A stretch of DNA of 10,166 nucleotides, from contig WLOR01000050.1 in the NCBI GenBank assembly GCA_009699165.1, positions 1 to 10,166 of the forward strand, in the 5' to 3' direction. The first letter of the stretch is position 1. Each line of letters opens with the position of its first letter. Shown piece after piece: positions 1 through 10,166 of this stretch. Made by a program: the position numbers and the translations under genes. Origin of the DNA: Actinomycetota bacterium. GTDB lineage: Bacteria > Actinomycetota > Actinomycetes > Nanopelagicales > Nanopelagicaceae. The notes below the pieces were generated by a model. That model was not told where the DNA came from, made no database searches, and saw only the letters and a list, made by a program, of their open reading frames with translations.

Positions 1-494
1 ACTCCGACCCAATATCCTTGAAGCGGTAATGAACCTTGCCAGTTCAAACTGGGCAAATCTGCAGTCGTCAATATGCCTGCTAAATCCGTCGTTTCATCCC
101 AGGTGAAAACAGAACCCTGTTGGCGACTCTTGTCAGACAGAATTAGAGTCACGTTGGTATTTTGTGTGCAATCGGCAATCACATGGTGATTCGTAACTAG
201 GTAGCTCTTAAACCCCTGACTTTTCTGCTGAGTGGTCAGTTCGGTGTTTATCGCCCAGGCAGTACCTTGCTTATTCCCACAAAGAATAGTGACTACTGAT
301 TTTGTGATTTTTGGAGCCAGCAAAGTCACATCATCTGGTGCCGAACTCGGATTAGCTAGGGTAGAAACACTTGAGGTTCCTACCGTGGGAAGTTCTGCGG
401 TTGGGACACTAGAGACCGAATTGCCAGCCCATGAACCAGTAGACAGAAAACACAACTGGACTACGACTAATACGCTCACGAATTTGAACTTCAT
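1..494 (-). CDS. Exported HtrA/trypsin-like serine protease, 3' end cut off by the window edge
   Basis: Reading the minus strand from ATG at 494-492 gives 164 codons without a stop up to the left edge. Residues 1-23 look like a Sec signal peptide: charged MKFKF, a hydrophobic stretch, and a cleavage site after SWA. A Ser/Thr/Pro-rich linker runs to about residue 52. Then comes the start of a chymotrypsin-fold domain: SVVTILCG with GTAW (residues 66-80), the catalytic-histidine segment LVTNHHVI (His104) and DETTDLAGIL with the expected catalytic Asp137. The catalytic serine (GxSG) lies beyond the edge. Cys72 and Cys109 sit either side of the histidine, as the C42-C58 disulfide does in chymotrypsin. 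A PDZ domain cannot be judged. The likely role is an extracytoplasmic protease. A weak Shine-Dalgarno (AGGG) precedes the ATG. The gene lies outside the tRNA-remnant repeats and has no visible link to the sugar cluster. Confidence 0.8.
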   Translation of the reverse strand, partial: MKFKFVSVLVVVQLCFLSTGSWAGNSVSSVPTAELPTVGTSSVSTLANPSSAPDDVTLLAPKITKSVVTILCGNKQGTAWAINTELTTQQKSQGFKSYLVTNHHVIADCTQNTNVTLILSDKSRQQGSVFTWDETTDLAGILTTADLPSLNWQGSLPLQGYWVG

Positions 495-632
495 ACAAAC
501 ACCCTACTCAAGTCCACTGACATTGCCCATGTTTTGCCCAGGAATTAGGTTCAGATAGGCATATTTGAACCAATTAATTGCACTGTAAACTGGTTAAATA
601 AGCGTAGATGAGAGATAAGACAACCCTGCAGT

Positions 633-694
633 CCTCACTGCTAACGAGGTAAGGTTTAATCGCCTTCAGGAGTTCAAATCTCCTCGTCTCCGCA
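633..694 (+). repeat. tRNA-Ser(GCT) 3' remnant, left copy (putative attachment-site scar)
   Basis: The segment folds as the 3' two thirds of a class II tRNA. The anticodon stem CCTCA/CGAGG has one A-C mismatch at the loop end and carries loop CTGCTAA (anticodon GCT, 640-642). The variable arm AAGG/CCTT is 651-654 with 663-666. The T arm AGGAG/CTCCT has loop TTCAAAT (668-684). The acceptor 3' strand CGTCTCC is 685-691, followed by discriminator G692. The tail reads CA, so no full CCA is encoded. A long variable arm with GCT makes it serine. The matching 5' acceptor strand (GGAGACG, even allowing G-U pairs) is absent from about 590-632 and I find no D arm there, so this is not an intact gene. 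It ends only 14 bases from the stop codon of the converging minus-strand operon. It aligns without gaps to 9673-9734. Confidence 0.8.
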
Positions 695-708
695 GAATGA
701 ATTTATAC

Positions 709-1332
709 TCAAAGCAGCTTATTAAGCTCAATTAATTTGCCAGCCCCGAACAAGGCGCTTGGTTGTGACACGTCTTCTATTTCGATTGTTGTTACTGCAC
801 CATTTATTATTCTCGGAAAATTAGTTCGGTAATTATTTAAATCAATACCGGTCAGACCACAGAGCATAAGTCTTCCCAATGTTGAGTGTGCAACCAACAA
901 AACTTTATGGGCACGATCAACCGACATTAATTCGAAGAGCGCATCAAATACGCGATTGACTGCATCGACGCCTCTCTCTCCGTTAGGAAGAGCGGAGTCT
1001 GCAGGCGCCTTTATAAATGCTTTCCGCGCTTGCGGAAATTTCACTTCCATCTCATCCGAAGTGAGGCCTTCGCCCAATCCGAAATCAACTTCTCGAAATC
1101 TAGGATCAATTTTGTGGGCAACTTTCGTAGCGATAACGCTGGGTGTCGCGGTAATAATCGCGCGAGATAGATCGGAGGAAGCAATCAGTTCTATATCTGT
1201 ACCTTTAGCCCACTCGGCCAACTTAATGCCCTGCTCAACCCCTTTTGGTGTTAGCGAGACATCAGTACTTCCCGCGTAACGATTTTCAGAATGCCACTCG
1301 GTCTCTCCATGACGCACAAGATATAAAATCAT
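709..1332 (-). CDS. Histidine phosphatase superfamily protein (phosphoglycerate-mutase-like)
   Basis: This 207-residue protein is about the usual size for small branch-1 histidine phosphatases. The N-terminal LVRHGETEW carries the phosphohistidine (His8) and Arg7. Arg57 in SDLSRA is the second phosphate-pocket arginine. FREVDFGLGEG supplies the acid (Glu81). VAHSTLGR holds the second catalytic histidine (His149). It therefore probably hydrolyses or transfers a phosphate on a small metabolite in the cytoplasm. Its size fits a phosphatase at least as well as a glycolytic mutase, which is normally longer. The ATG overlaps the stop of the upstream kinase as ATGA, indicating translational coupling as the last gene of the minus-strand operon. 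In context it may dephosphorylate a sugar-phosphate intermediate or recycle a dead-end product. The substrate cannot be read from sequence. Confidence 0.85.
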   Translation of the reverse strand: MILYLVRHGETEWHSENRYAGSTDVSLTPKGVEQGIKLAEWAKGTDIELIASSDLSRAIITATPSVIATKVAHKIDPRFREVDFGLGEGLTSDEMEVKFPQARKAFIKAPADSALPNGERGVDAVNRVFDALFELMSVDRAHKVLLVAHSTLGRLMLCGLTGIDLNNYRTNFPRIINGAVTTIEIEDVSQPSALFGAGKLIELNKLL

Positions 1333-2828
1333 ACGTAAATCCTCGCCAATGCAAAGTTTTTCAATTCAGTTGTAATCCAAAGTTGATCATGAAGCATCTC
1401 AACAAATTGTGCATACTGGGTGAGCAATAGTTTTCCATTAGATAAATTCGGCTTGATTTCAAAACCCGATGAGAGCAATCGGTTTGCAACGTTTGCAAGC
1501 TTCAACCTCTCTTCAGATACTTCAAATGCCGCTGCAGCCAAGATTGCCATACCAACAGCGCCTTCTACTTCTTCGGGAACAATAACAGGGTGGCCCAGAA
1601 TGTCTGAGCGAAGTTGGTTCCAGTCTGCATTCTTGGCGCCTCCTCCTGTGAATGTATATGTACCAGAGATGTCATAACCAACATAAGCGAGGAGATCGAA
1701 AGAGAGGCGCTCGACAAATGCAACACCCTTTGCGATTGCTGCGAAAGTCTTTTGCACACCATCATTTTCAAGAGTTGGGAAATTTGCCCCATTAGCAACA
1801 AGTGTATGCGCCTTGCTGGATACAAAGGGAAATCGTTCTCCAATGCCGGGGAGGGGATAAACAATTGGTGCATCGAGCACATTTTGGAAAGTAAATTTGA
1901 GTTGATCGACTTCAACCCCCGGCAACCAATGTGCGATTGCATTTGTACCAGTACTTGATGCACCACCTGGCCACCAACCTGTAGAAAATGGTGCTCTATG
2001 AGAATAGACCGACCCGGTTTGATCACGCTTTCGAACTAAGCTGGAACCTTTGATAACTAAAGTTGTTCCCAGAACTGAGTTCCAACTACCTGATGCAAGT
2101 GCTGCAGCAGCAATCTGTGCAGCACAACCATCAGTCATGCCCGCGACGATCGAGGTCTGTGAGGTTAGTGGCGTTTCATTGGCGCCAGAAACAACTCCGA
2201 TTACTTCGCCAGCCATGGTTACGTCAGGGAGAACATCACGGGGGATCTTAAGTCCTGCTAATAAATCTGAAGACCATTGAACTTTCTCGATGTCGAAACC
2301 CGATTTAAGAGTATTGCTTGCATCGCTATTTACTTGTTTACGAGCGAGCTTCCATGCGATGTAATCACCTTGGTGAATAACTTTTCTTCCCACAACCAGA
2401 GTTCCCTGATCAAGTAGCCAAAGAATTTTTGGTAACGCCCATGACTCTTGAATCCTGTAGCCGAGGTTAGCCCAGAGCGCTGCACCGACCTCATTACATT
2501 CTGCCGCGCGATCGCCAGCTCGGGCGTCGTCATACATAATGCCCGTACTTACTGGTTTGCCTTGCGAATCTACAACTACAAGAGATCCAGAAGTTGAAGA
2601 GATGCTTATCGCCTTAACATCTTCTGGTGTCACTGTTGATATGACTTTTGCGATTACCTCTTGAGATGCGGCCCACCACTGTTCTGGATCTTGTTCGTGA
2701 ATAACACCTTCACGCGTGCTTTTTAACGGCGCTGCGGCATTTGCAATGATTATTCCAGAGTCATCAATTAGGACAGCTTTGATGCTTTGTGTACCTATAT
2801 CTAACCCTAACCAGAACGGTGTCTTCAC
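1329..2828 (-). CDS. FGGY-family carbohydrate kinase, D-ribulokinase/xylulokinase-like
   Basis: The protein has 499 residues, normal for FGGY kinases, which transfer the ATP gamma-phosphate to a sugar or polyol hydroxyl in the cytoplasm. Numbering from the chosen start, LGLDIGTQSIKAV (Asp10) is the N-terminal phosphate-binding motif. ISSTSGSLVVVD and IMYDDARA (about 76-103) form the substrate side. MTDGCAA gives the probable catalytic Asp233, followed by LGTT. TGGGAKNADW (about 394-402) is the C-terminal adenine-binding loop. The STSG plus MYDDARA pattern resembles D-ribulokinase-type members, but specificity is not settled. I chose GTG at 2828-2826 because it overlaps the upstream kinase stop by one base (TAGTG) and gives a compact MKTPFWLGLD start. 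An in-frame TTG at 2840 would add four residues. It is co-translated with the kinase before it and the phosphatase after it, and all key motifs look intact. Confidence 0.85.
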   Translation of the reverse strand: MKTPFWLGLDIGTQSIKAVLIDDSGIIIANAAAPLKSTREGVIHEQDPEQWWAASQEVIAKVISTVTPEDVKAISISSTSGSLVVVDSQGKPVSTGIMYDDARAGDRAAECNEVGAALWANLGYRIQESWALPKILWLLDQGTLVVGRKVIHQGDYIAWKLARKQVNSDASNTLKSGFDIEKVQWSSDLLAGLKIPRDVLPDVTMAGEVIGVVSGANETPLTSQTSIVAGMTDGCAAQIAAAALASGSWNSVLGTTLVIKGSSLVRKRDQTGSVYSHRAPFSTGWWPGGASSTGTNAIAHWLPGVEVDQLKFTFQNVLDAPIVYPLPGIGERFPFVSSKAHTLVANGANFPTLENDGVQKTFAAIAKGVAFVERLSFDLLAYVGYDISGTYTFTGGGAKNADWNQLRSDILGHPVIVPEEVEGAVGMAILAAAAFEVSEERLKLANVANRLLSSGFEIKPNLSNGKLLLTQYAQFVEMLHDQLWITTELKNFALARIYV

Positions 2829-4288
2829 TAGAGAGACCAACTTGGCTGAATCGATTTACGGAGGGCAACAAATGTTGCATGTTGAGCTGAGTAGAAATCA
2901 ACTAGTTCCGCTGTCGGAATAAAAGTATCTGATTGTGAGACAAGGTTCTTTGCAGCCTCCTCTAATGAAGAGAATTTCCCAATTGAAACGGTCGCGTACA
3001 TCAGTGCACCTTTTGCACCGACTTGAGTATCACTTGTCCGAGACGTAGGAACACCAACAACATCGGCAATTAATTGACACCAGAAATCACTTCGTGCTCC
3101 ACCTCCGCTTATGGCAAGTTGCCTTATTGGTGATTTCGTCATCTCTAAGCACTCACGAATAACATGCGCAAGTGCTTCGTAAACTGAACGAGCAATATCT
3201 TCTCGAGTGGTATTGCTGGTGATACCGTGCAAGCTCGCGCGTGCGCGTGAATCAAGGAATGGGGCACGCTCTCCAGCACTAGAGAAGTAAGGCAGAAGAA
3301 TTACGCCACCTGCACCAGGTCTAGAGGTCGATGCAGCGTCACCAACTTCTTCAACTGTTGAGTAGTGGAGAGATTCCATCGCCCACGTCAGCGCACTTGT
3401 GCCGGTGAGAGTAGGCAGAGCGCGTAAGTATGAGTTGCTTTGGCCGGTAAGCAAATTAAGACCTGCAGCATCTCCTGAGGTATCAAGGCTCTTTAGCAAA
3501 ATACCGGGGCAGGTTGTTGTGCCTAGAATTACAAATGCATCACCCTCATCGAGGGCACCAGAGCCAGTTGCAGTAGCGAGAATGTCATACGGTGACATCA
3601 CGACAGGTATTTGGGTTGCAATCCCTAGCTCACTCGAAGCCTGCACCGATAGCCGAGATTGAGAATCTATAAGTACGGGTGGTATTTTCCCCGCGAATTC
3701 GGTAAGGCCATAAAGCTCAATTAGTTCTTTGCTTATTGACCCATTCGCGATTTCTATCCAAGGGGCAGATGCCTCAGAGATGTGCTGGCCAATAACGCCA
3801 GTGAGTTTGAAGTAGATCCAACTTCCACAAGTCAGAACCGAAGAGGTCTTTTCTAAGACCTGAGGATCATTCTTTGAAAACCATTTAATAATCGCATTTG
3901 GAAGGCCAAGACTTGTCAGCGAACCATTTATCTTAAAAGCTTTATCAAGCAGACCATTCTTTTCCCATTCATCAATTTCAGCTGCAGCGCGACCGTCATT
4001 CCATAAAACAGCGTTGCGTACTGGGCTGCCTGTGTCATCAATCATCCACGCGCCATCACCTTGCGCAGTAACAGAGACGGCATCAATGGGAAGTTCTGTT
4101 TGCGTAAGAATTTCCTTACAAGTTTCAACAACACTCTGCCAGACCTCGTTCATATCCTGCTCTGACAATCCATCCGCCGGACTCAAAACATATGTGGCTC
4201 GAGATGCAACTAAAAGTTCATTGCCCCGCTCATCAAATAGCACTGATTTGATAAGAGTTGTACCTGCGTCAATGCATAAGATTGCCAT
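2828..4288 (-). CDS. FGGY-family carbohydrate kinase, erythritol kinase/L-xylulokinase-like
   Basis: This 486-residue FGGY kinase has all the main motifs. CIDAGTTLIKSVLFD (Asp7) is the first phosphate motif. VSVTAQGDGAWMIDD and LWNDGRAA (about 71-102) line the substrate pocket. SPYDILATATGSG contains the probable catalytic Asp235, followed by LGTTTC (255-260). ISGGGARSDFW (about 393-403) binds the nucleotide. The AQGDG signature with WNDGR is typical of the EryA/LyxK side of the family, so a tetritol, pentitol or L-ketopentose is a reasonable substrate guess. It is only about a quarter identical by eye to the neighbouring kinase, so the pair is not a recent duplication and probably acts on different substrates. 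The start ATG lies 14 bases after the dehydrogenase stop, with no clear Shine-Dalgarno. Its own stop overlaps the next kinase start (TAGTG). Confidence 0.86.
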   Translation of the reverse strand: MAILCIDAGTTLIKSVLFDERGNELLVASRATYVLSPADGLSEQDMNEVWQSVVETCKEILTQTELPIDAVSVTAQGDGAWMIDDTGSPVRNAVLWNDGRAAAEIDEWEKNGLLDKAFKINGSLTSLGLPNAIIKWFSKNDPQVLEKTSSVLTCGSWIYFKLTGVIGQHISEASAPWIEIANGSISKELIELYGLTEFAGKIPPVLIDSQSRLSVQASSELGIATQIPVVMSPYDILATATGSGALDEGDAFVILGTTTCPGILLKSLDTSGDAAGLNLLTGQSNSYLRALPTLTGTSALTWAMESLHYSTVEEVGDAASTSRPGAGGVILLPYFSSAGERAPFLDSRARASLHGITSNTTREDIARSVYEALAHVIRECLEMTKSPIRQLAISGGGARSDFWCQLIADVVGVPTSRTSDTQVGAKGALMYATVSIGKFSSLEEAAKNLVSQSDTFIPTAELVDFYSAQHATFVALRKSIQPSWSL

Positions 4289-4302
4289 AAGAAATATCGA
4301 AA

Positions 4303-5358
4303 CTACTTTTCAAGTAAGTGGGTAGAAAGAATCTCTTTGTTGGCAACAAATTGAGGTGCTTTGCCTTCAAGGAAGAGCTTGATTTCATCACCGATTATAT
4401 TTGCCGCTCTCCAAGCAGTTTGTTTCGTTGCGCCTGCAAGATGCGGGGCAAGAACTACATTTTCAATTCCTAGCAGTGGCCAATCACTTGGTGGTGGCTC
4501 GATATCATAAACATCAAGAGCTATTGCACCAATACGACCTGAACGAAGCAAATCTGGAAGGGGTTTGTAATCCATCAGTCCCCCGCGAGCCGAGTTTACA
4601 ATTACCGCACCTTCTGGAAGCAGTTTCATATTTTCTGCATTAAGAATATTTCTCGATTCAGAAGTTAAGCGCGCATGAAGACTTACTACACTCGAATTTT
4701 TCAATAGGTAATCGAGCTCAACAGATTCGACACCGTCGGCTTCCATAACTGTCTTATCCGTATAAGGATCAAAAACAATTACATTCGCGCCCATTGCGAT
4801 AAGAATTTTCGCAACAATTCTTCCGATTGCGCCATAGCCAATAAGCCCGACAGTTGTGCCGCATATTTCAATTCCAGTTTTTTCGTAGCTATAGAAATCT
4901 CCACGCCAAATACCATTATGAAGATCAGAATTTCCACGTGTGATTCTGCGCATCGCAGCCAACATCAACGCAATTGCAAATTCAGCTGCAGCTTGTGCGT
5001 TTCTCCCTGGTGCATAAGAGACGAGCACCCCTGCCTCGGTCGCTGCTTTTAAGTCAATATTGACTGGCCCGCCGCGGCATACACCAATCATCTTGAGGTC
5101 AGGGGCATTCTTAAAAACCTCTGCAGAAAAAGGGGCTAAATGAGTCGCTGCAATCTCAACACCTTGTAGTTTTTCAATTAGCTCACTGACTGCACCACTT
5201 GCTTCGAAAACCCCATCAATATCTCGAAAGGGTTCCATCGGCCACTGCGTTTTGATGTATGTGAATTCAAAAGGATGCGATGGCAAACGCTCGCGAAGAG
5301 CACCGTCAAATAATTCTGGGAGAACGAAAAAATCTCCTGCACAGAGAATTTTAGTCAT
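4303..5358 (-). CDS. D-isomer-specific 2-hydroxyacid dehydrogenase (phosphoglycerate-dehydrogenase-like)
   Basis: The protein has 351 residues in the usual D-2-hydroxyacid dehydrogenase layout: a split substrate-binding domain around a central Rossmann fold. The dinucleotide loop is GLIGYGAIGR (GxGxxG at 174-179). Asp197 at the end of the next strand (VIVFDPYTD) indicates NAD rather than NADP. The catalytic triad is present: Arg258 in NSARGG, Glu287 in DVYDIEPP and His306 in APHLAG. The substrate loop reads CRGGPVNIDL (94-103), unlike the GVGVDNID-type loop of serine-pathway phosphoglycerate dehydrogenases. It lacks the ACT/regulatory C-terminal domain. It probably interconverts a 2-hydroxy acid, perhaps a sugar acid or its phosphate, and the 2-keto acid. 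The ATG follows the repressor stop by nine bases without a clear Shine-Dalgarno, so coupling to the regulator gene is likely. Confidence 0.87.
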   Translation of the reverse strand: MTKILCAGDFFVLPELFDGALRERLPSHPFEFTYIKTQWPMEPFRDIDGVFEASGAVSELIEKLQGVEIAATHLAPFSAEVFKNAPDLKMIGVCRGGPVNIDLKAATEAGVLVSYAPGRNAQAAAEFAIALMLAAMRRITRGNSDLHNGIWRGDFYSYEKTGIEICGTTVGLIGYGAIGRIVAKILIAMGANVIVFDPYTDKTVMEADGVESVELDYLLKNSSVVSLHARLTSESRNILNAENMKLLPEGAVIVNSARGGLMDYKPLPDLLRSGRIGAIALDVYDIEPPPSDWPLLGIENVVLAPHLAGATKQTAWRAANIIGDEIKLFLEGKAPQFVANKEILSTHLLEK

Positions 5359-5367
5359 CTGTGTCGC

Positions 5368-6147
5368 TCATCGCGCTACATGTACTGTAGTTACTTCACG
5401 CAGCTGGCTAATAACTTCATCAGGTGTTTCATCAGTTAGCACCACATCAGTGAAATCCGAGGCTGGGACAAAACGGTTGAGAGAAGTTCTCCCGATTTTA
5501 GATTCATCTAAAAGCAAGAATTTACGAGTACCAGCCCGGAGCATTGCTCGCTTCATCAAAACAACATCGTGCTCTTGGTGGTATGTCATTCCATCATGCA
5601 TGGTTGATGTTGAGAGAAAAACTGCATCAACAGCGTAATTCTCGATCCCGGTCATATTCGGAATACCAATAAATGAATCATGAGTACGTGAATAAGTGCC
5701 GCCAAGAATAATAAGTCGCACATCAGGACAATCAGCGAGAACTTCAATTGCTGGACGGAAATTTGAAATAATTGTGATTGGCCCAAAGTCACTTAATAAT
5801 CGGGCGAGCGCTAATACTGTTGTTGAATCGTCAAGCATGACCGACATGCCCGGTTCAATAAATTTAATTGCTTCGCGTGCGAGTTTTTCCTTAGCTTCAC
5901 TACTTCGCCCCATACGAAAAGCTGAACTAGATTCAAAGATGCTTGTTGGAAGCGCAGAAACGCCGCCATGGAATTTACGAACCAGGCCGCGCGTAGAAAG
6001 TTCATCTAGATCACGATGGATAGTCATAATTGAACAATTGACAACCTCTGCGAGCTCAGCAGAGGAGGCAGAACCAGCTTTTAGGACATAGTCCAGGACG
6101 GTGCGCTGGCGAAGTGCGCGGGCACTTGTTGGTTCAACCACCGACAC
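5368..6147 (-). CDS. DeoR/GlpR-family transcriptional regulator of sugar metabolism
   Basis: From the chosen start the protein has 259 residues, standard for DeoR-family repressors. Residues 12-63 form the winged helix-turn-helix: RQRTVLDYV, ELAEVVNCSIMTIHRDLDEL, then GLVRKFHGGV. The recognition part reads MTIHRDL where most members have TIRRDL. The rest is the sugar-phosphate-sensing DeoRC domain, with MLDDSTT (104-110) and LGGTYSR (148-154). Such proteins usually repress neighbouring genes until a phosphorylated sugar binds. I prefer GTG at 6147-6145 because AAAGGGG lies seven bases upstream. An in-frame GTG at 6183 adds 12 residues but has no ribosome site. It is the first gene of the minus-strand operon, divergent from the transporter, and the 22-bp palindrome at 6225-6246 is its likely operator, which would make it autoregulatory. 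Confidence 0.88.
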   Translation of the reverse strand: MSVVEPTSARALRQRTVLDYVLKAGSASSAELAEVVNCSIMTIHRDLDELSTRGLVRKFHGGVSALPTSIFESSSAFRMGRSSEAKEKLAREAIKFIEPGMSVMLDDSTTVLALARLLSDFGPITIISNFRPAIEVLADCPDVRLIILGGTYSRTHDSFIGIPNMTGIENYAVDAVFLSTSTMHDGMTYHQEHDVVLMKRAMLRAGTRKFLLLDESKIGRTSLNRFVPASDFTDVVLTDETPDEVISQLREVTTVHVAR

Positions 6148-6224
6148 GAAACCACCCCTTTCTGGGTCTAAATACGCTTGCACTGAGAAGTATGCATGCT
6201 TTTCATCAAGCCTAATGATATAAC

Positions 6225-6246
6225 TTTATAACAATTTTGTTATAAA
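6225..6246. promoter_or_regulatory. 22-bp palindrome, candidate DeoR-type operator
   Basis: Arms TTTATAACAA and TTGTTATAAA are perfect ten-base inverted repeats around a two-base TT centre. The site sits in the AT-rich gap between the divergent repressor and transporter genes, which is where an operator controlling both directions belongs. TTGTTA at 6237-6242 could also serve as a -35 element for the transporter, with TAGTTT at 6261-6266 as -10 (18-base spacer), so binding would block transcription. On the other strand, AT-rich -10-like hexamers lie just beyond the site toward the repressor gene. Assignment to this repressor is inferred from position and symmetry. Confidence 0.7.
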
Positions 6247-6397
6247 TCACATTATTTCTGTAGTTTTTCACTTTTTTCTTGATATTTATATTACCTTACC
6301 GCATAAGGAGCAGGAGTCGCCAAATGAGTGGCATCTACTGCAGACGAGAAGGAAAAAGAAGTTCTCACTCTGGGAACTCACCAAACAAGGAGAAAAT
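6247..6397 (+). promoter_or_regulatory. Promoter and leader of the transporter operon
   Basis: This AT-rich stretch contains several possible promoter elements for the binding-protein gene. One is the TTGTTA/TAGTTT pair starting in the operator. Another is TTGATA at 6279-6284 with a weak CATAAG 17 bases on. None is a strong consensus, so the transcription start is uncertain. The downstream leader has a good ribosome site AAGGAG at 6387-6392, five bases before the ATG at 6398. It also holds a short ORF at 6324-6455 (43 codons) preceded by CAGGAG at 6311-6316, out of frame with and overlapping the start of the binding-protein gene. A weak hairpin AGTTC/GAACT spans 6360-6378. Confidence 0.4.
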
Positions 6398-7447
6398 ATG
6401 CAGAAGTCAAAGAAGTTCTTTGCGGCAGTCGGTGCAGTCGCACTCGTTGCTGTGACAATTTCGACTGCTCCAGCTCACGCTGCTAGCGGCAAGATTGCGT
6501 TCTTAATGCCAGACCTTGCATCAACACGTTATGAACAACAGGATGCTCCCTTCTTTAAGGCAGCAGTTGCAAAGCTTTGCCCAACATGTGAAGTTCTTTA
6601 CCAGAACGCAGACTCAGATGCTGCAAAGCAGCAGTCACAAGCCGATGCTGCAATTACACAAGGTGCAAAAGTTCTCGTACTCGATGCAGTAGATGCTAAA
6701 GCAGCTGCTTCAATCGTCAAGACAGCACAAGCTGCGGGTGTAATTGTTATTACATACGATCGCCCAATCATTGATGCAGTCGCAGACTTCTACATCTCAT
6801 TCGACAATGAATATATCGGCAAGGCAATTGCACAGTCTTTGGTTAAGGGACTTGATGCAAAGAAAGCTAAGGGCGGAATTCTTGTTGTTGGTGGATCACC
6901 AACAGATAATGCTGCTGGCCTTATCAAGAAAGGCATGCTCGCAGGAGTTGCCGGAAGTAAGTACAAGGTCCTAGCAAAGTTCGATACACCAGCTTGGGAT
7001 CCTGCAAAAGCACAAGCATGGGTATCAGGACAGATCACACAGTTTGGTTCAAAGATTGTTGGTATTGTTGCAGCTAACGACGGAACAGGCGGCGGATCAA
7101 TTGCAGCTCTTAAGGCTGCAGGAGTTAAGCCACTTCCACTTGTTACAGGTAACGATGCTGAAGTTGCTGCTATCCAGCGCATTATTGCTGGAGATCAGTA
7201 CAACACAATCTCAAAGCCAATCCAGATTGTTGCTGAAGGTGCCGCAAAGATTGCAGTTGGATACCTGAACGGTACCCAGCCAAAATCAACAGGCATTCTC
7301 TACAAGACCAAGTCACAGCTCTTCACACCAACAGTAGTTACAGCTAAGAACATCAAGGCTCAACTATTTGATTCAGGGCTGTACAAGGCTGCTGATGTAT
7401 GTACAGGTGTTTACGCAGCTGGATGTAAAAAGCTCGGAATTAAGTAA
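6398..7447 (+). CDS. Sugar ABC transporter substrate-binding protein (CUT2, RbsB/XylF-like)
   Basis: This 349-residue secreted binding protein delivers the sugar to the transporter encoded downstream. Residues 1-28 are a Sec signal peptide with cleavage after AHA. The mature part begins ASGKIAFLMPDLASTRYEQQ and continues as a periplasmic-binding-protein type I fold. Typical segments are QADAAITQGAKVLVLDAVD, VITYDRPI, VAANDGTGGGSIAALKAAG and LVTGNDAEVAAIQRI. The overall pattern is closest to xylose/ribose/fructose-type members; ligand identity is not deducible. There is no lipobox cysteine at the cleavage site, so it is apparently not a lipoprotein, although Gram-positive binding proteins usually are. 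Cys61/Cys64 and Cys335/Cys343 could form disulfides. Codon use is strongly uniform (GCA, GTT, AAG favoured), as in highly expressed genes. The ribosome site AAGGAG supports the ATG. Confidence 0.92.
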   Translation: MQKSKKFFAAVGAVALVAVTISTAPAHAASGKIAFLMPDLASTRYEQQDAPFFKAAVAKLCPTCEVLYQNADSDAAKQQSQADAAITQGAKVLVLDAVDAKAAASIVKTAQAAGVIVITYDRPIIDAVADFYISFDNEYIGKAIAQSLVKGLDAKKAKGGILVVGGSPTDNAAGLIKKGMLAGVAGSKYKVLAKFDTPAWDPAKAQAWVSGQITQFGSKIVGIVAANDGTGGGSIAALKAAGVKPLPLVTGNDAEVAAIQRIIAGDQYNTISKPIQIVAEGAAKIAVGYLNGTQPKSTGILYKTKSQLFTPTVVTAKNIKAQLFDSGLYKAADVCTGVYAAGCKKLGIK

Positions 7448-7449
7448 AT

Positions 7450-7467
7450 ATCCTACGTAGGTAGGAT
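7450..7467 (+). repeat. Small inverted repeat after the binding-protein gene
   Basis: ATCCTAC and GTAGGAT are perfect seven-base arms around a GTAG loop, starting three bases after the stop codon. The loop and inner stem also contain the palindrome CCTACGTAGG. It lies five bases before the large hairpin at 7473-7514. It may act as an mRNA 3'-end stabiliser or a protein site; the function is unknown. Confidence 0.5.
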
Positions 7468-7472
7468 CTAGT

Positions 7473-7514
7473 TTTTGGGCCAGCAACTGATTTGAAATAG
7501 TTGCTGGCCCAAAA
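7473..7514 (+). terminator. Strong 16-bp stem hairpin (terminator or mRNA-stabilising attenuator)
   Basis: TTTTGGGCCAGCAACT and AGTTGCTGGCCCAAAA pair perfectly over 16 bases with a ten-base loop. The stem is GC-rich in the middle and A/T at the base, and a loose T-rich stretch (ATTATTTT) follows the right arm, so it can serve as an intrinsic terminator. Its place between the binding-protein gene and the ATPase gene is the classic position for partial termination. That would leave a stable, abundant binding-protein transcript and less ATPase/permease message. A weak secondary promoter is conceivable just downstream (TACTAT at 7541-7546, no good -35). Confidence 0.8.
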
Positions 7515-7584
7515 GCATTATTTTCACCAGAAATTCTGAATACTATTAGCACGTAAATCTGCGCGGTTAACAAGAGGGATCATG

Positions 7585-8367
7585 ATGAGCAATAAGACAG
7601 TAACAAGTGAAGTAGTTCTTTCACTTAAAAACGTCTCTAAAAACTTTGGTGCAGTAGCAGCCCTCACAGATGTTGAACTTGACATCAGAGCTGGCGAAGT
7701 TGTCGCTCTTGTTGGTGATAATGGAGCAGGCAAATCAACATTGGTAAAGATTTTGGCTGGTGTTCACCCGCAAGATGTGGGTGTCGTAAAAATCGCCGGT
7801 CAGGAAGTCCATCTTGCATCTCCGTCAGATTCAATCAAGTACGGAATTGCAACAGTATTTCAAGATCTCGCACTCTGCGACAATCTTGATGTAGTACAAA
7901 ATTTATTTCTGGGTCGTCAGCTTCGGAGACACCGCCTTGATGAAGTAACAATGGAAACCACGGCCTGGGATCTCATCCGACAACTACGCGCAAAAATTCC
8001 ATCAGTTCGTATCCCTATCGCATCACTTTCTGGTGGACAACGCCAGAGCGTTGCCATTGCTCGATCACTACTTGGAAACCCAAAACTCATCATGCTCGAT
8101 GAACCAACGGCTGCACTTGGTGTTGCTCAGACAGCCGAAGTTCTTAATTTAATCGAGCGGCTTCGTGACCGTGGCCTTGCCGTTATTCTTATCAGTCACA
8201 ATATGGATGACATTTTTGCAGTTGCAGATCGCATTGCAGTTCTGCGACTTGGGCGAAACAACGGCATCTTTAGTGCTAATCAAACATCACGTAAAGAAGT
8301 GATTGAAGCAATCACTGGTTCCGTGGATAACGCAGTGACTCAGCGCGCAGAAGCACAGTCCAAGTAA
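7585..8367 (+). CDS. Sugar ABC transporter ATP-binding protein, single-domain (FrcA/XylG-like)
   Basis: The protein powers uptake by ATP hydrolysis on the cytoplasmic face. Numbered from the preferred ATG, Walker A is GDNGAGKST (44-52), the Q-loop VFQD has Gln93, the ABC signature is LSGGQ (148-152), Walker B is LIMLDEP (168-174) and the switch histidine is His205 in LISHN. At 260 residues it has one nucleotide-binding domain, unlike the roughly 500-residue tandem RbsA/AraG type. It matches the short form seen in FrcA-type systems, which act as homodimers. Two ATG codons are adjacent (7582 and 7585). The second is better spaced from the GAGGG ribosome site at 7574-7578. The permease gene follows within 25 bases. 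Confidence 0.92.
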   Translation: MSNKTVTSEVVLSLKNVSKNFGAVAALTDVELDIRAGEVVALVGDNGAGKSTLVKILAGVHPQDVGVVKIAGQEVHLASPSDSIKYGIATVFQDLALCDNLDVVQNLFLGRQLRRHRLDEVTMETTAWDLIRQLRAKIPSVRIPIASLSGGQRQSVAIARSLLGNPKLIMLDEPTAALGVAQTAEVLNLIERLRDRGLAVILISHNMDDIFAVADRIAVLRLGRNNGIFSANQTSRKEVIEAITGSVDNAVTQRAEAQSK

Positions 8368-8391
8368 GAATTCATGAGAGATGGAATTAGA

Positions 8392-9624
8392 ATGACTACA
8401 CAGCCAACTGACCTTCAAGATGAACGACTGATTATCAATAAAGGCTTAGGTGGGGCGATAAAGAAAACCCGCAACCGCATTAAGTCTGGTGATCTCGGTA
8501 ACCTTCCTGTCATCATTGGCCTGCTCATTATTTCTACAATTTTCCAGATCTTGAATCGGTTTTTCTTATCAAGTGCCAATCTCTCCAATCTCTTGATGGA
8601 ATGTTCTGCCGTAGGAGTTCTTGCTCTTGGAATCGTGCTTGTTCTTCTCGTAGGCGAGATTGATCTCTCCGTTGGTTCTATGAGCGGCCTGTCAGCGGCC
8701 ATTTTTGCAGTTCAATTTGTTCGAAATGGCTTGCCACTTGTGTTCTGCATCCTTCTTTCTATTGCAGCAGGAGCTTTCATCGGCTGGATTTATGGTCAAA
8801 TTTACAACCGGATTGGCGTCCCTGCCTTCGTCATTACTCTCGCAGGACTCTTAGGTTTTCTTGGCCTCCAGCTTTTTGTACTTGGTGCGACAGGAACCAT
8901 CAACCTTCCCTTTGAATCCCCACTTGTTCAATTCGGCCAGCAGGCATATCTGGGCCATACTTTCTCTTATATTTTGGCAATTTCAATCGCACTTGTGCGC
9001 TTTGGGCTGGGTTACTACGGAGCAACGACTCGTCGAAAAGCAGGCCTTTCGGCTCCGTCATTGACTTCAATTGCACTCCAATCTCTCTTCATTGCTATAG
9101 CACTGGGATCGATGGCTTGGTATCTCAATAAGAGCCGCGGAATCGGCTGGATGTTCGTCTTCTTCATTACATTAGTTGTCATCATGGATTACGCACTACG
9201 CCGCACAAGTTGGGGTAATTCAGTTTTTGCAGTTGGTGGTAACCGTGAAGCTGCACGCCGTGCTGGAATCAATGTAAAAGGAATCTACACATCGGTCTTC
9301 ATTCTCTGTTCAACGCTTGGGGCGATTGGAGGCTTGCTTGCCGCAGGTCGACTAGCAGCCGCAGCACAAAGTAGCGGCACTGGTGACGTCAACCTCAATG
9401 CAATTGCAGCCGCCGTTATTGGTGGAACGAGCCTCTTTGGTGGTCGTGGAAGTGCATATGCTGCACCACTTGGAATGGTCGTGATCGCTGCAATTTCAAG
9501 TGGCCTGACTCTGATGAACCTCAACTCATCAATTCGCTATATGGTCACAGGCGCAATTGTCCTCCTCGCGGTATCTGTTGATGCTGTTGCGCGCCGTTCA
9601 CGAACCTCACACGGACGGGCCTAG
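8392..9624 (+). CDS. Sugar ABC transporter permease (BPD_transp_2 family, RbsC/XylH/FrcC-like)
   Basis: This integral membrane subunit forms the translocation path for the sugar. From ATG at 8392 it has 410 residues: a hydrophilic N-terminus of about 38 residues, then around nine or ten hydrophobic segments (for example about 38-54, 73-88, 98-110, 115-135, 143-165, 190-207, 228-245, 252-267, 300-318 and 355-395). Family hallmarks are the EIDLSVGSMSG motif (89-99), the GGNREAARRAGI cytoplasmic loop (282-293) that contacts the ATPase, and GGTSLFGGRGS (344-354). A basic loop near 212-218 (ATTRRKA) divides the protein. An in-frame ATG at 8374 would add MRDGIR but has no ribosome site; 8392 is preceded by a weak purine-rich stretch. 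It is co-transcribed with the ATPase and is the last gene before the right tRNA remnant. Confidence 0.92.
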   Translation: MTTQPTDLQDERLIINKGLGGAIKKTRNRIKSGDLGNLPVIIGLLIISTIFQILNRFFLSSANLSNLLMECSAVGVLALGIVLVLLVGEIDLSVGSMSGLSAAIFAVQFVRNGLPLVFCILLSIAAGAFIGWIYGQIYNRIGVPAFVITLAGLLGFLGLQLFVLGATGTINLPFESPLVQFGQQAYLGHTFSYILAISIALVRFGLGYYGATTRRKAGLSAPSLTSIALQSLFIAIALGSMAWYLNKSRGIGWMFVFFITLVVIMDYALRRTSWGNSVFAVGGNREAARRAGINVKGIYTSVFILCSTLGAIGGLLAAGRLAAAAQSSGTGDVNLNAIAAAVIGGTSLFGGRGSAYAAPLGMVVIAAISSGLTLMNLNSSIRYMVTGAIVLLAVSVDAVARRSRTSHGRA

Positions 9625-9672
9625 TCACCTCCAAGAATTTTCTTTTAATATCGAATACTTCGATCGGGTGCG

Positions 9673-9735
9673 CTTCATTGTTAACGGGGGAATGTTTAAT
9701 CGCCATCAGGTGTTCAAATCTCCTCGTCTTCACCA
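9673..9735 (+). repeat. tRNA-Ser 3' remnant, right copy (diverged direct repeat)
   Basis: This copy aligns without gaps to 633-694, same orientation, with 51 of 62 positions identical. The anticodon-stem region CTTCA/CGGGG has two G-U pairs where the left copy has C-G and T-A. The loop reads TTGTTAA, so the anticodon position is GTT rather than GCT. The variable arm is weakened (ATG/CAT) and the T stem has a mismatch (AGGTG/CTCCT). The acceptor 3' strand is CGTCTTC, discriminator A, followed by CCA at 9733-9735. No complementary 5' acceptor strand or D arm is found upstream, so it is a pseudogene fragment. It ends 31 bases before the next gene. Confidence 0.75.
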
Positions 9736-9766: not shown

Positions 9767-10166
9767 ATGCAAAAACCCGAAAATCGAGAGTCTTTGAGTT
9801 CACGCTCAATAGCTCAAAGAGCCATAGATTTTCCTGAGCAAATAAGCCTTGCCTCTGAAACCGAAAAAATCACCGCCTTTGAATTGAATGCGATAGTTAA
9901 CTCGTTTTCACAAACTCTTAGCCAGATACCAAAATCACCAACATTTCTTCCAGTGCTCTTAGGTCCAAATATTAACTCCGTCATCGCATATCACGCAGCG
10001 ATTCGATCTAGGACACCATTTGCACTTATCGACTCAAATGTTAATCCAGATTATCTGCAGTCAATACTTACTCGTTTAGGCAATCCGAAATATTTTGTGA
10101 ATACAAATCCTGAGGCATTAAATATAAGTGCTCTTGAACAGGTATTTGTGGGAAGAGATAAGGCAA
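9767..10166 (+). CDS. AMP-binding/adenylation-domain enzyme, N-terminal part only
   Basis: An open frame runs from ATG at 9767 to the right edge (133 codons), with an in-frame TAG at 9755 fixing the upstream limit. The pattern fits the N-terminal subdomain of ANL-superfamily enzymes (acyl-CoA synthetases, NRPS adenylation domains). SIAQRAIDFPEQISLAS is followed by ITAFELNAIVNSFSQTL. LPVLLGPNINSVIAYHAAI comes next, then RTPFALIDSNVNPDYLQSIL in place of the usual aGaayvPldp...erl..il, and KYFVNT. Such enzymes activate a carboxylate with ATP to an acyl-adenylate. The AMP-binding P-loop and substrate pocket lie beyond the edge, so the substrate is unknown. It lies outside the tRNA-bounded cassette and shows no functional link to it. 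Confidence 0.6.
   Translation, partial: MQKPENRESLSSRSIAQRAIDFPEQISLASETEKITAFELNAIVNSFSQTLSQIPKSPTFLPVLLGPNINSVIAYHAAIRSRTPFALIDSNVNPDYLQSILTRLGNPKYFVNTNPEALNISALEQVFVGRDKA

What the first reader, a model, noticed from the sequence alone, without database searches (positions are those of the whole stretch)
633..9735. Sugar cassette bracketed by direct repeats of a tRNA-Ser 3' end: a probable cargo island without its own integrase
Both ends of the self-contained regulator, enzyme and transporter cassette carry the same 3' portion of a serine tRNA gene in the same orientation (633-694 and 9673-9735). They share 51 of 62 positions, including an 18-base perfect run across the T loop. Neither has the 5' half of a tRNA. 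Tyrosine recombinases that use tRNA genes leave exactly such 3' duplications. tRNA-remnant-bounded cargo units lacking obvious phage genes resemble the tycheposon-type elements described in marine picocyanobacteria, but I know of no assignment for this one. The locus would be a swappable nutrient-uptake module in a streamlined genome.
Basis: partly seen in the sequence, partly recalled or inferred. Interest (0 to 1): 0.85.

Follow-up and report, generated by a model that had tools for sequence, protein, structure and literature searches.

The report
Sugar-gene cassette in tRNA integration hotspot
A set of sugar-uptake genes in a small-genome bacterium sits between two broken copies of a serine tRNA gene, probably the scars of successive DNA insertions at a spot where related bacteria carry nothing, other nutrient genes or restriction genes.

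Summary
In detail: 633-694 and 9673-9734 match at 51 of 62 positions (run of 18), and both derive from tRNA-Ser(GCT). One correction: the right copy keeps decayed 5'-half homology; only the left lacks it.

The island reading is supported. In relatives the locus reads M24-peptidase / tRNA-Ser(GCT) / oxidoreductase ('fprA'). Of 45 genomes where the distance could be read, 23 have under 50 bp between tRNA and fprA and 22 have 0.46-28 kb. G023 carries the same cassette directly behind an intact tRNA-Ser.

The repeats are probably not the two ends of one element. The left scar belongs to a later, upstream insertion: a 110-bp end precedes it, shared with G002, G073 and G118 between different genes. 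Its outer motif lies exactly 111 bp from the tRNA core at eight sites, three of them intact tRNAs. One (G057) ends an element with an integrase gene and DNA methyltransferases; G010 has a related integrase behind the same tRNA.

New variant of a known kind (tRNA-anchored additive island). Lateral movement of this cassette is inferred; dS shows no recent exchange.

The parts
3..494 (-). Start of a trypsin/HtrA-like secreted protease gene, cut by the contig end; probably cargo of the upstream (later) element
   Evidence: PF01732 6.3e-06 and PF13365 7.9e-05, both below Pfam's cut-off
523..548 (+). Outer motif of the element end, TTGCCCATGTTTTGCCCAGGAATTAG (direct repeat TTGCCCA)
   Evidence: 8 of 135 genomes, one site each, with a pattern fitted to the instances; each exactly 111 bp before a tRNA-Ser core
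523..632 (+). 110-bp arm shared with G002, G073, G118; different genes beyond it on either side
   Evidence: 90-96% identity, found in 4 of 135 genomes; alignment; neighbours
584..591 (+). TGTAAACT, presumed -10 box of the tRNA-Ser promoter (role inferred), kept in the arm
   Evidence: same sequence at offset 61 from the motif in 8 of 8 sites
633..694 (+). 3' piece of tRNA-Ser(GCT): scar of the later, upstream insertion
   Evidence: 61 of 62 positions match a relative's intact tRNA-Ser
709..1332 (-). Histidine phosphatase superfamily gene
   Evidence: PF00300 1e-43
1329..2840 (-). FGGY carbohydrate kinase A
   Evidence: PF00370 2.9e-36
2828..4288 (-). FGGY carbohydrate kinase B
   Evidence: PF00370 1.3e-45, PF02782 2.8e-26
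4303..5358 (-). D-2-hydroxyacid dehydrogenase
   Evidence: PF02826 3.1e-50
5368..6183 (-). DeoR-type regulator
   Evidence: PF00455 5.4e-37, PF08220 2.7e-11
6398..7447 (+). Sugar-binding protein (xylose/ChvE-like)
   Evidence: PF13407 1.4e-55; TIGR02634 4.4e-53, under its cut-off
7473..7514 (+). 16-bp perfect hairpin between binding protein and ATPase
   Evidence: I8; G023 matches it at 88%
7582..8367 (+). Sugar ABC transporter ATPase, single domain
   Evidence: PF00005 1.3e-31, one stretch
8374..9624 (+). Sugar ABC transporter permease
   Evidence: PF02653 3.1e-25
9644..9735 (+). Decayed, nearly full-length tRNA-Ser(GCT) copy: scar of an older insertion
   Evidence: 53 of 63 matches at tRNA positions 30-92, 17 of 29 at positions 1-29
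9767..10165 (+). Start of an unassigned gene (by eye like an AMP-binding enzyme, not tested); an island gene
   Evidence: no family hit; homologues of 58-60% downstream of tRNA-Ser in G092 and G060

Best explanation
The window is a slice of a modular island that grows at the tRNA-Ser(GCT) gene of a small-genome actinobacterium. SHOWN: relatives have an empty site (tRNA-Ser next to the oxidoreductase gene called fprA here), other cargo, or this very cassette right behind an intact tRNA-Ser; tRNA-Ser pieces mark borders inside the islands; a conserved end (motif exactly 111 bp before the anticodon core) recurs at eight borders; an integrase family was found in 2 of 135 genomes, in both on a contig with this tRNA-Ser, in one of them inside an element ending in that motif. 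INFERRED: the eight-gene sugar operon entered as cargo and abutted the tRNA, as in G023; an older event left the decayed tRNA at 9644-9735; later an element with the conserved end recombined at the anticodon core of the tRNA, put its own DNA (with the protease gene) between the intact tRNA and the cassette, and left the displaced 3' piece 633-694. So the pieces record successive insertions, the youngest nearest the intact tRNA. The integrase that acted is not in the window; it was lost or acted from elsewhere, and the G057/G010 integrase family is the candidate.
For: Cassette behind intact tRNA-Ser in G023. Of 45 genomes with a readable distance, 23 are empty and 22 occupied; ten of the empty ones are also tight on the peptidase side. 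Arm plus 3' piece in four genomes with different genes on both sides. In the two of these four whose intact tRNA-Ser is assembled (G002, G118), the piece has the host's own variable-arm type, one base apart in G118, while the arm is shared; this is expected if the arm came with the element and the 3' end was the host's. G118 has the intact tRNA and, 6.9 kb downstream on the same strand, the arm and 3' piece, with a sugar ABC transporter between. Motif to core exactly 111 bp and to the TGTAAACT box 61 bp in 8 of 8. One of the eight (G041) was found by a genome-wide pattern search made without regard to tRNAs. G057: 5' tRNA piece, integrase gene (phrog_1, 5.6e-19), a small excisionase-like gene (phrog_1840, 2.6e-06), two methyltransferases, motif, intact tRNA on one contig. 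That integrase family in 2 of 135 genomes, both at this tRNA; its presumed active-site residues are shared by the two. Left scar 61 of 62, right scar 52 of 62.
Against: No integrase in the window. In its assembly there is one PF00589 match, a 309-aa protein on another contig, taken as a Xer type, and no G057-type integrase. The near-complete arm-bearing genomes G002 and G118 also have only two PF00589 matches each, Xer-like, and no G057 type, so the link between arm and integrase rests on the shared motif. The assembly is fragmented, so the order intact tRNA / protease / left scar / cassette is not seen on one piece. Cassette dS between G000 and G023 (0.37-1.5) is not clearly below the one unsaturated core value (1.3), so lateral transfer of this cassette is not shown. 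G023 has no detectable right-hand scar. The motif pattern was fitted to its instances; its reversed control gave 8 hits in 135 genomes at up to 2 mismatches. The spacers inside the 111 bp are not all unrelated: between the five sequence types 8-18 of 34 positions match, and four pairs reach 16-18, so part of the fixed spacing may be common descent. Neither Pfam nor a PDB sequence search recognises the integrase family and its structure model is poor, mean pLDDT 41.7. No viral contig has an exact match to the arm, core or tRNA 3'-end patterns.
Confidence: 0.72

Rival explanations
1. One reading: the two repeats are the paired attachment sites of a single cassette element that inserts and leaves as a unit.
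For: The eight genes fit exactly between the copies, 14 bp from the left one and about 20 bp from the right one. The cassette is a self-contained operon; all eight genes lie in the same order in two Agromyces genomes (L141, L142).
Against: The left copy carries the end of a different, upstream element; decay is unequal (61 versus 52 of 62); the right copy retains 5'-half homology and has no motif at -111; G023 has the cassette with no detectable right scar.
Confidence: 0.17
2. Cargo is exchanged by ordinary homologous recombination between tRNA-Ser copies or flanking core genes, without a dedicated integrase; tRNA pieces are remains of tandem whole-gene copies.
For: G109 has two intact copies on separate contigs and G105 three copies or pieces on one contig; 5' pieces with intact copies further on (G068, G092); no integrase recognised in the islands of G118, G002 or G023; the cassette in G023 ends without a detectable scar.
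Against: Exact 111-bp motif spacing, sharp common arm edge, and an integrase family found only at this site in the genus.
Confidence: 0.2
3. The cassette is ancestral at this locus and was lost in most lineages; tRNA pieces come from unrelated neighbours.
For: Cassette dS between G000 and G023 is of the order of core dS; same junction with tRNA-Ser in both.
Against: The four nearest relatives of G000 by fprA among the held loci (G103, G004, G083, G015) and two of the three nearest of G023 by the peptidase gene (G146, G141) have empty sites; the third, G075, has at least 1.5 kb of other DNA behind its tRNA and no cassette match. The cassette was found in 3 of 61 genomes; other genomes hold unrelated cargo there.
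Confidence: 0.2
4. The 523-694 unit is a functional small-RNA gene made from a tRNA-Ser promoter and 3' half rather than an attachment scar.
For: Keeps the TGTAAACT box at the tRNA distance; the 5' part before the core varies little in four genomes; 6 of 7 acceptor pairs possible by eye.
Against: No ARAGORN gene and no convincing Rfam match; found in 4 of 135 genomes, each time at a cargo border.
Confidence: 0.08

Closest known systems
Additive flexible islands at tRNA genes in marine 'Ca. Actinomarinales' (PMC7771536, passages read)
   Same: [quoted passage not shown] two further such loci (Ile, Glu) lie next to ABC transporter genes; small-genome planktonic actinobacteria.
   Different: Other tRNAs; no conserved element end in the passages read; the words integrase and recombinase do not occur in that text.
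tRNA/tmRNA genomic islands mapped by Islander (PMC4383910, passages read)
   Same: Intact tRNA plus displaced fragment in the same orientation; tandem arrays and 5'-fragment islands are known there (159 islands with 5' fragments, 3760 with 3' fragments).
   Different: Islander rejects candidates without an integrase; here nutrient modules show none, and sites with the same motif border both 3' pieces and tRNAs that appear rebuilt from the 5' side.
Tycheposons (term as used in PMC10872708, passages read; original paper not held)
   Same: tRNA border, nutrient cargo, streamlined plankton.
   Different: No recombinase in the window; other phylum and tRNA; no tycheposon core genes were looked for.

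Membership tests
tRNA-anchored additive genomic island | Empty sites in relatives at the same tRNA | tested here: met
   23 of 45 genomes with a readable distance
tRNA-anchored additive genomic island | Partial tRNA repeats at cargo borders, same orientation | tested here: met
   window; G118, G002, G073, G091
tRNA-anchored additive genomic island | Different cargo at the same site | tested here: met
Islander-type integrative island | Intact tRNA gene paired with its fragment on one replicon | tested here: inconclusive
   no intact tRNA-Ser(GCT) in the 83%-complete assembly; met in G118
Islander-type integrative island | Integrase gene inside the island | tested here: not met
   none in the window; present at the site in G057 and G010
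Tycheposon | tRNA at the border | tested here: met
Tycheposon | Tyrosine recombinase in the element | tested here: not met
   one PF00589 match in the assembly, on another contig
Tycheposon | Tycheposon-specific genes other than the recombinase | not tested
   original description not held
Prophage or phage satellite | Phage integration, packaging or structural genes in the window | tested here: not met
   PHROGs matches of ten window proteins are metabolic, regulatory or transporter-like
Prophage or phage satellite | Attachment site or integrase known from viruses | tested here: not met
   no exact match of four patterns in viral contigs; no viral or phage relative of the G057 integrase found

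The most novel reading that the evidence does not exclude
A family of integrative elements in these bacteria shares one recombination end (paired TTGCCC repeats 111 bp from the anticodon core of tRNA-Ser(GCT)) and carries either defence cargo, in one seen case with its own integrase, or nutrient cargo without one. Members can rebuild the tRNA from its 3' side (leaving a 3' piece) or bring their own promoter and 5' half (leaving a 5' piece), so integrase-less sugar cassettes ride on a recombination system supplied by defence elements.
Probability: 0.32. Interest if true: 0.75.

Novelty: new variant of a known kind. Interest (0 to 1): 0.5.

Why it matters
Small-genome planktonic bacteria are reported to differ in carbohydrate transporters (PMC10872708, passage read). 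This locus offers a testable route: one tRNA gene where nutrient and defence modules are added one after another, with scars that record the order, and an attachment sequence that can be searched for in metagenomes. If the integrase of the defence elements also moves integrase-less nutrient modules, phage defence and nutrient use would be exchanged by the same machinery.

Tried and rejected
Chance similarity: rejected. A functional tRNA or other Rfam RNA at either repeat: none (the tmRNA hit at 667-684 is only the T arm, E 0.29). PF00589 integrases near the tRNA in 34 relatives: besides Xer-like ones, matches on a fragmented-genome contig that also holds tRNA-Ser were in G139, where it proved to sit behind tRNA-Arg(ACG), G053 (62 kb away) and G018 (weak, about 20 kb away, not followed up). 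PF00589 does not see the G057 integrase, and the list was cut short, so absence by that model is weak. Exact patterns in viral contigs: none. Viral or phage relatives of the G057 integrase: none. Recent transfer judged by dS: not shown. Motif at the right copy: absent (8 of 26 positions at the expected place, at most 12 within 8 bp). Structure model of the integrase: low confidence, not searched against structures. tRNA pieces that merely end at a contig end were not counted as scars (G137, G104, G129, G133, G100, G052, G125). A naming error of mine: scripts and notes call the left core gene 'DAHPS'; Pfam shows an M24 peptidase. The literature library holds neither the freshwater actinobacteria microdiversification paper nor the tycheposon paper. 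Odds: on recounting, the spacer matches made the fixed spacing less independent, so I lowered the novel case from 0.35 to 0.32.
Full report
Setting. The window is a complete 10,166-base contig (G000:C79) of an unnamed 1.3-Mb assembly, 132 contigs, 83% complete. The nearest named relative with the cassette, G023, is the contig CAIJHZ010000120.1, 'uncultured actinobacterium isolate Ja2-D2_bin-0117'. That the group is the freshwater order Nanopelagicales (acI) is my inference from genome size and relatives; no call says so.

Observation. The repeats are real, in the same orientation and far above chance. Both come from tRNA-Ser(GCT). The left copy matched something in 23 of 41 genomes at E up to 1 (weak chance matches included), and 17 of the 29 loci L029-L057 hold an intact tRNA-Ser(gct) by ARAGORN. 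The left copy agrees with a relative's gene at 61 of 62 positions but its 5' side does not resemble a tRNA (11 of 29). The right copy agrees at 52 of 62 and keeps 17 of 29 positions of the 5' side, so it is a decayed, nearly full-length copy.

The locus in relatives. I scanned the stretches around tRNA-Ser(GCT) for neighbouring genes. The core order is an M24 peptidase gene (reverse; PF00557 7.5e-51), tRNA-Ser(GCT), an oxidoreductase gene (PF07992 1.6e-15; I call it fprA from its sequence by eye), then often tRNA-Arg(ACG). The distance from tRNA-Ser to fprA could be read in 45 genomes. In 23 it is under 50 bp. In 22 it is 0.46 to about 28 kb (three of these span two fetched stretches: G139, G149, G150). 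In ten of the 23 (G004, G014, G015, G058, G063, G083, G085, G103, G116, G146) the peptidase side is tight as well, so the site is completely empty. The 45 are not a random sample: 107 of 135 genomes of the genus have some tRNA-Ser(GCT) match, I fetched loci for only part of them, and short loci can show an empty site but not a long insert. Genomes with 1.5 kb or more behind the tRNA and no fprA in view are in neither count.

The cassette. The eight genes are histidine phosphatase, two FGGY kinases, 2-hydroxyacid dehydrogenase, DeoR regulator, sugar-binding protein, single-domain ABC ATPase and permease. The same eight lie in the same order in two Agromyces genomes (L141, L142), so this is an ordinary actinobacterial sugar operon used as cargo. 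In the genus, a long match was found in 3 of 61 genomes: G000, G023 (80% over 633-9625) and G076 (76%, on a contig that holds only part of the cassette) (four candidate places scored per genome). In G023 it lies between an intact tRNA-Ser and, after one small gene, fprA, with the same left junction as in the window. The four nearest relatives of G000 by fprA among held loci (G103, G004, G083, G015) have empty sites. So have G146 and G141, the nearest of G023 by the peptidase; the next one, G075, has at least 1.5 kb of other DNA behind its tRNA and no cassette match. Synonymous divergence between G000 and G023 is 0.37-1.5 in the cassette, 1.3 and about 3 (saturated) in two core genes, so the data do not show a recent exchange.

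The left scar belongs to another element. The 110 bp before the left copy (523-632) occur in 4 of 135 genomes, each time joined to a tRNA-Ser 3' piece: G000, G002, G073, G118. The genes on either side differ in all four. In G002 and G118, whose intact tRNA-Ser is assembled, the piece has the host's own variable-arm type (one base apart in G118) while the arm is shared; for G000 and G073 this cannot be checked. This is what site-specific integration gives when the arm comes from the element and the 3' end from the host. In G118 the intact tRNA-Ser and the arm with the 3' piece lie 6.9 kb apart on one contig, same strand, with a sugar ABC transporter in between. The simplest history for the window is that the cassette once abutted the tRNA, as in G023, and that an element with this end (and the protease-like gene) was inserted later at the tRNA, leaving 633-694 behind. 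The more decayed right copy records an older event. A homologue of the gene at 9767 also lies downstream of tRNA-Ser in G092 and G060, so the right flank is island DNA too.

A shared attachment end. The outer 26 bp of the arm form a motif with a direct repeat of TTGCCC. A first pattern search over 135 genomes found it in six, with no hit of the reversed control. The sixth, G041, was unexpected: the motif stood before an intact tRNA-Ser. Looking upstream of 69 distinct tRNA-Ser(gct) sequences then held showed two more, G057 and G101. A pattern fitted to all eight finds those eight, one per genome; its reversed control gives 8 hits at up to 2 mismatches. In all eight the motif is exactly 111 bp before the anticodon core and 61 bp before TGTAAACT. 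The spacers between motif and TGTAAACT fall into five types that share 8-18 of 34 positions; four pairs reach 16-18, so some of the constancy may be common descent. In the held sequences, which are rich in this locus, a looser repeat pattern has 11 hits, nine of them beside a tRNA-Ser core.

Integrase-bearing members. In G057, one contig reads: 5' piece of tRNA-Ser (positions 1-47), a 216-aa gene, a gene with a weak excisionase match (0.003), a 486-aa integrase (phrog_1, 5.6e-19), a small HTH_17 protein with an excisionase match (2.6e-06), two DNA methyltransferases, motif, intact tRNA-Ser. G010 has a 49% identical integrase behind an intact tRNA-Ser, with a TTGCCC repeat 126 bp after the core; PHROGs gives phrog_216 at 2.5e-05 there. 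These are 2 of 135 genomes (more distant relatives could be missed). Residues expected for a tyrosine recombinase (R257, K304, H399, R402, W426, Y436; roles assigned from recall) are shared by the two. Pfam and a PDB sequence search do not recognise the family and the predicted model is poor. G101 has the same kind of left end with a related gene (32% identity) on one contig, and McrBC-type restriction genes, motif and intact tRNA on another; that these belong to one element is inferred. In G057 and G101 the tRNA appears rebuilt from the 5' side, since the 5' piece is left on the peptidase side. In G000, G002, G073, G118 and G091 a 3' piece is left. Islands with 5' pieces are a known minority (159 against 3760 in Islander, PMC4383910, passages read).

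What is known. [quoted passage not shown] Passages of PMC10872708 describe a tRNA-Lys additive island and tycheposons in Methylophilaceae and mention carbohydrate-transporter diversity in Nanopelagicales. My searches for islands, tRNA or integrase with Nanopelagicales, Planktophila or freshwater actinobacteria listed no paper that, in the listings and passages I saw, describes this tRNA-Ser site or its motif; most subscription papers are not in the library.

Verdict. A real tRNA-anchored island whose content varies between relatives; the cassette is one module in it; the two repeats are best read as scars of two events. The likely new point is the common attachment end that links integrase-less nutrient modules to integrase-bearing elements with restriction or methylation genes at one tRNA.

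Noticed in passing
L248 (G139:C4), 2566-3852: An integrase gene (379 aa, PF00589 4.2e-28) lies directly behind tRNA-Arg(ACG), just past fprA: a second integration site next to this hotspot.
   Followed up: partly
L228 5877-5926, L252 5092-5142 (-), L093 8174-8223 (-): In G007, G003 and G005 a sequence like tRNA-Ser positions 2-52 (80-88%) ends just before an ATG about 1.3 kb behind the intact tRNA.
   Followed up: partly
L225 (G105) 4717, 7901, 10177: Three tRNA-Ser copies in a row on one contig, the first and last damaged in different parts, with kinase and aldolase genes upstream that look like an arabinose set by eye (not tested).
   Followed up: partly
L244 (G109:C57) 2-151 and 7182: A partial second copy of fprA lies 7 kb before the tRNA-Ser/fprA pair, as if a segment including fprA had been duplicated.
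   Followed up: no
L238 and L260 (G149), L239 and L286 (G150): About 28 kb between tRNA-Ser and fprA in two single-contig genomes, without detectable tRNA-Ser pieces.
   Followed up: no
window 7473-7514: Perfect 16-bp hairpin between the binding protein and the ATPase gene, also matched in G023; may tune expression of the binding protein.
   Followed up: no
window 7582-8367: Single-domain sugar ABC ATPase of 261 aa, while the xylose/ribose-type models it resembles are about 500 positions long.
   Followed up: no
L089 (G010:C67) 237-1706 and 4226-5359: The G010 integrase element also carries an endonuclease-like gene (phrog_681 9.7e-46) and a 377-aa gene with no family match.
   Followed up: no
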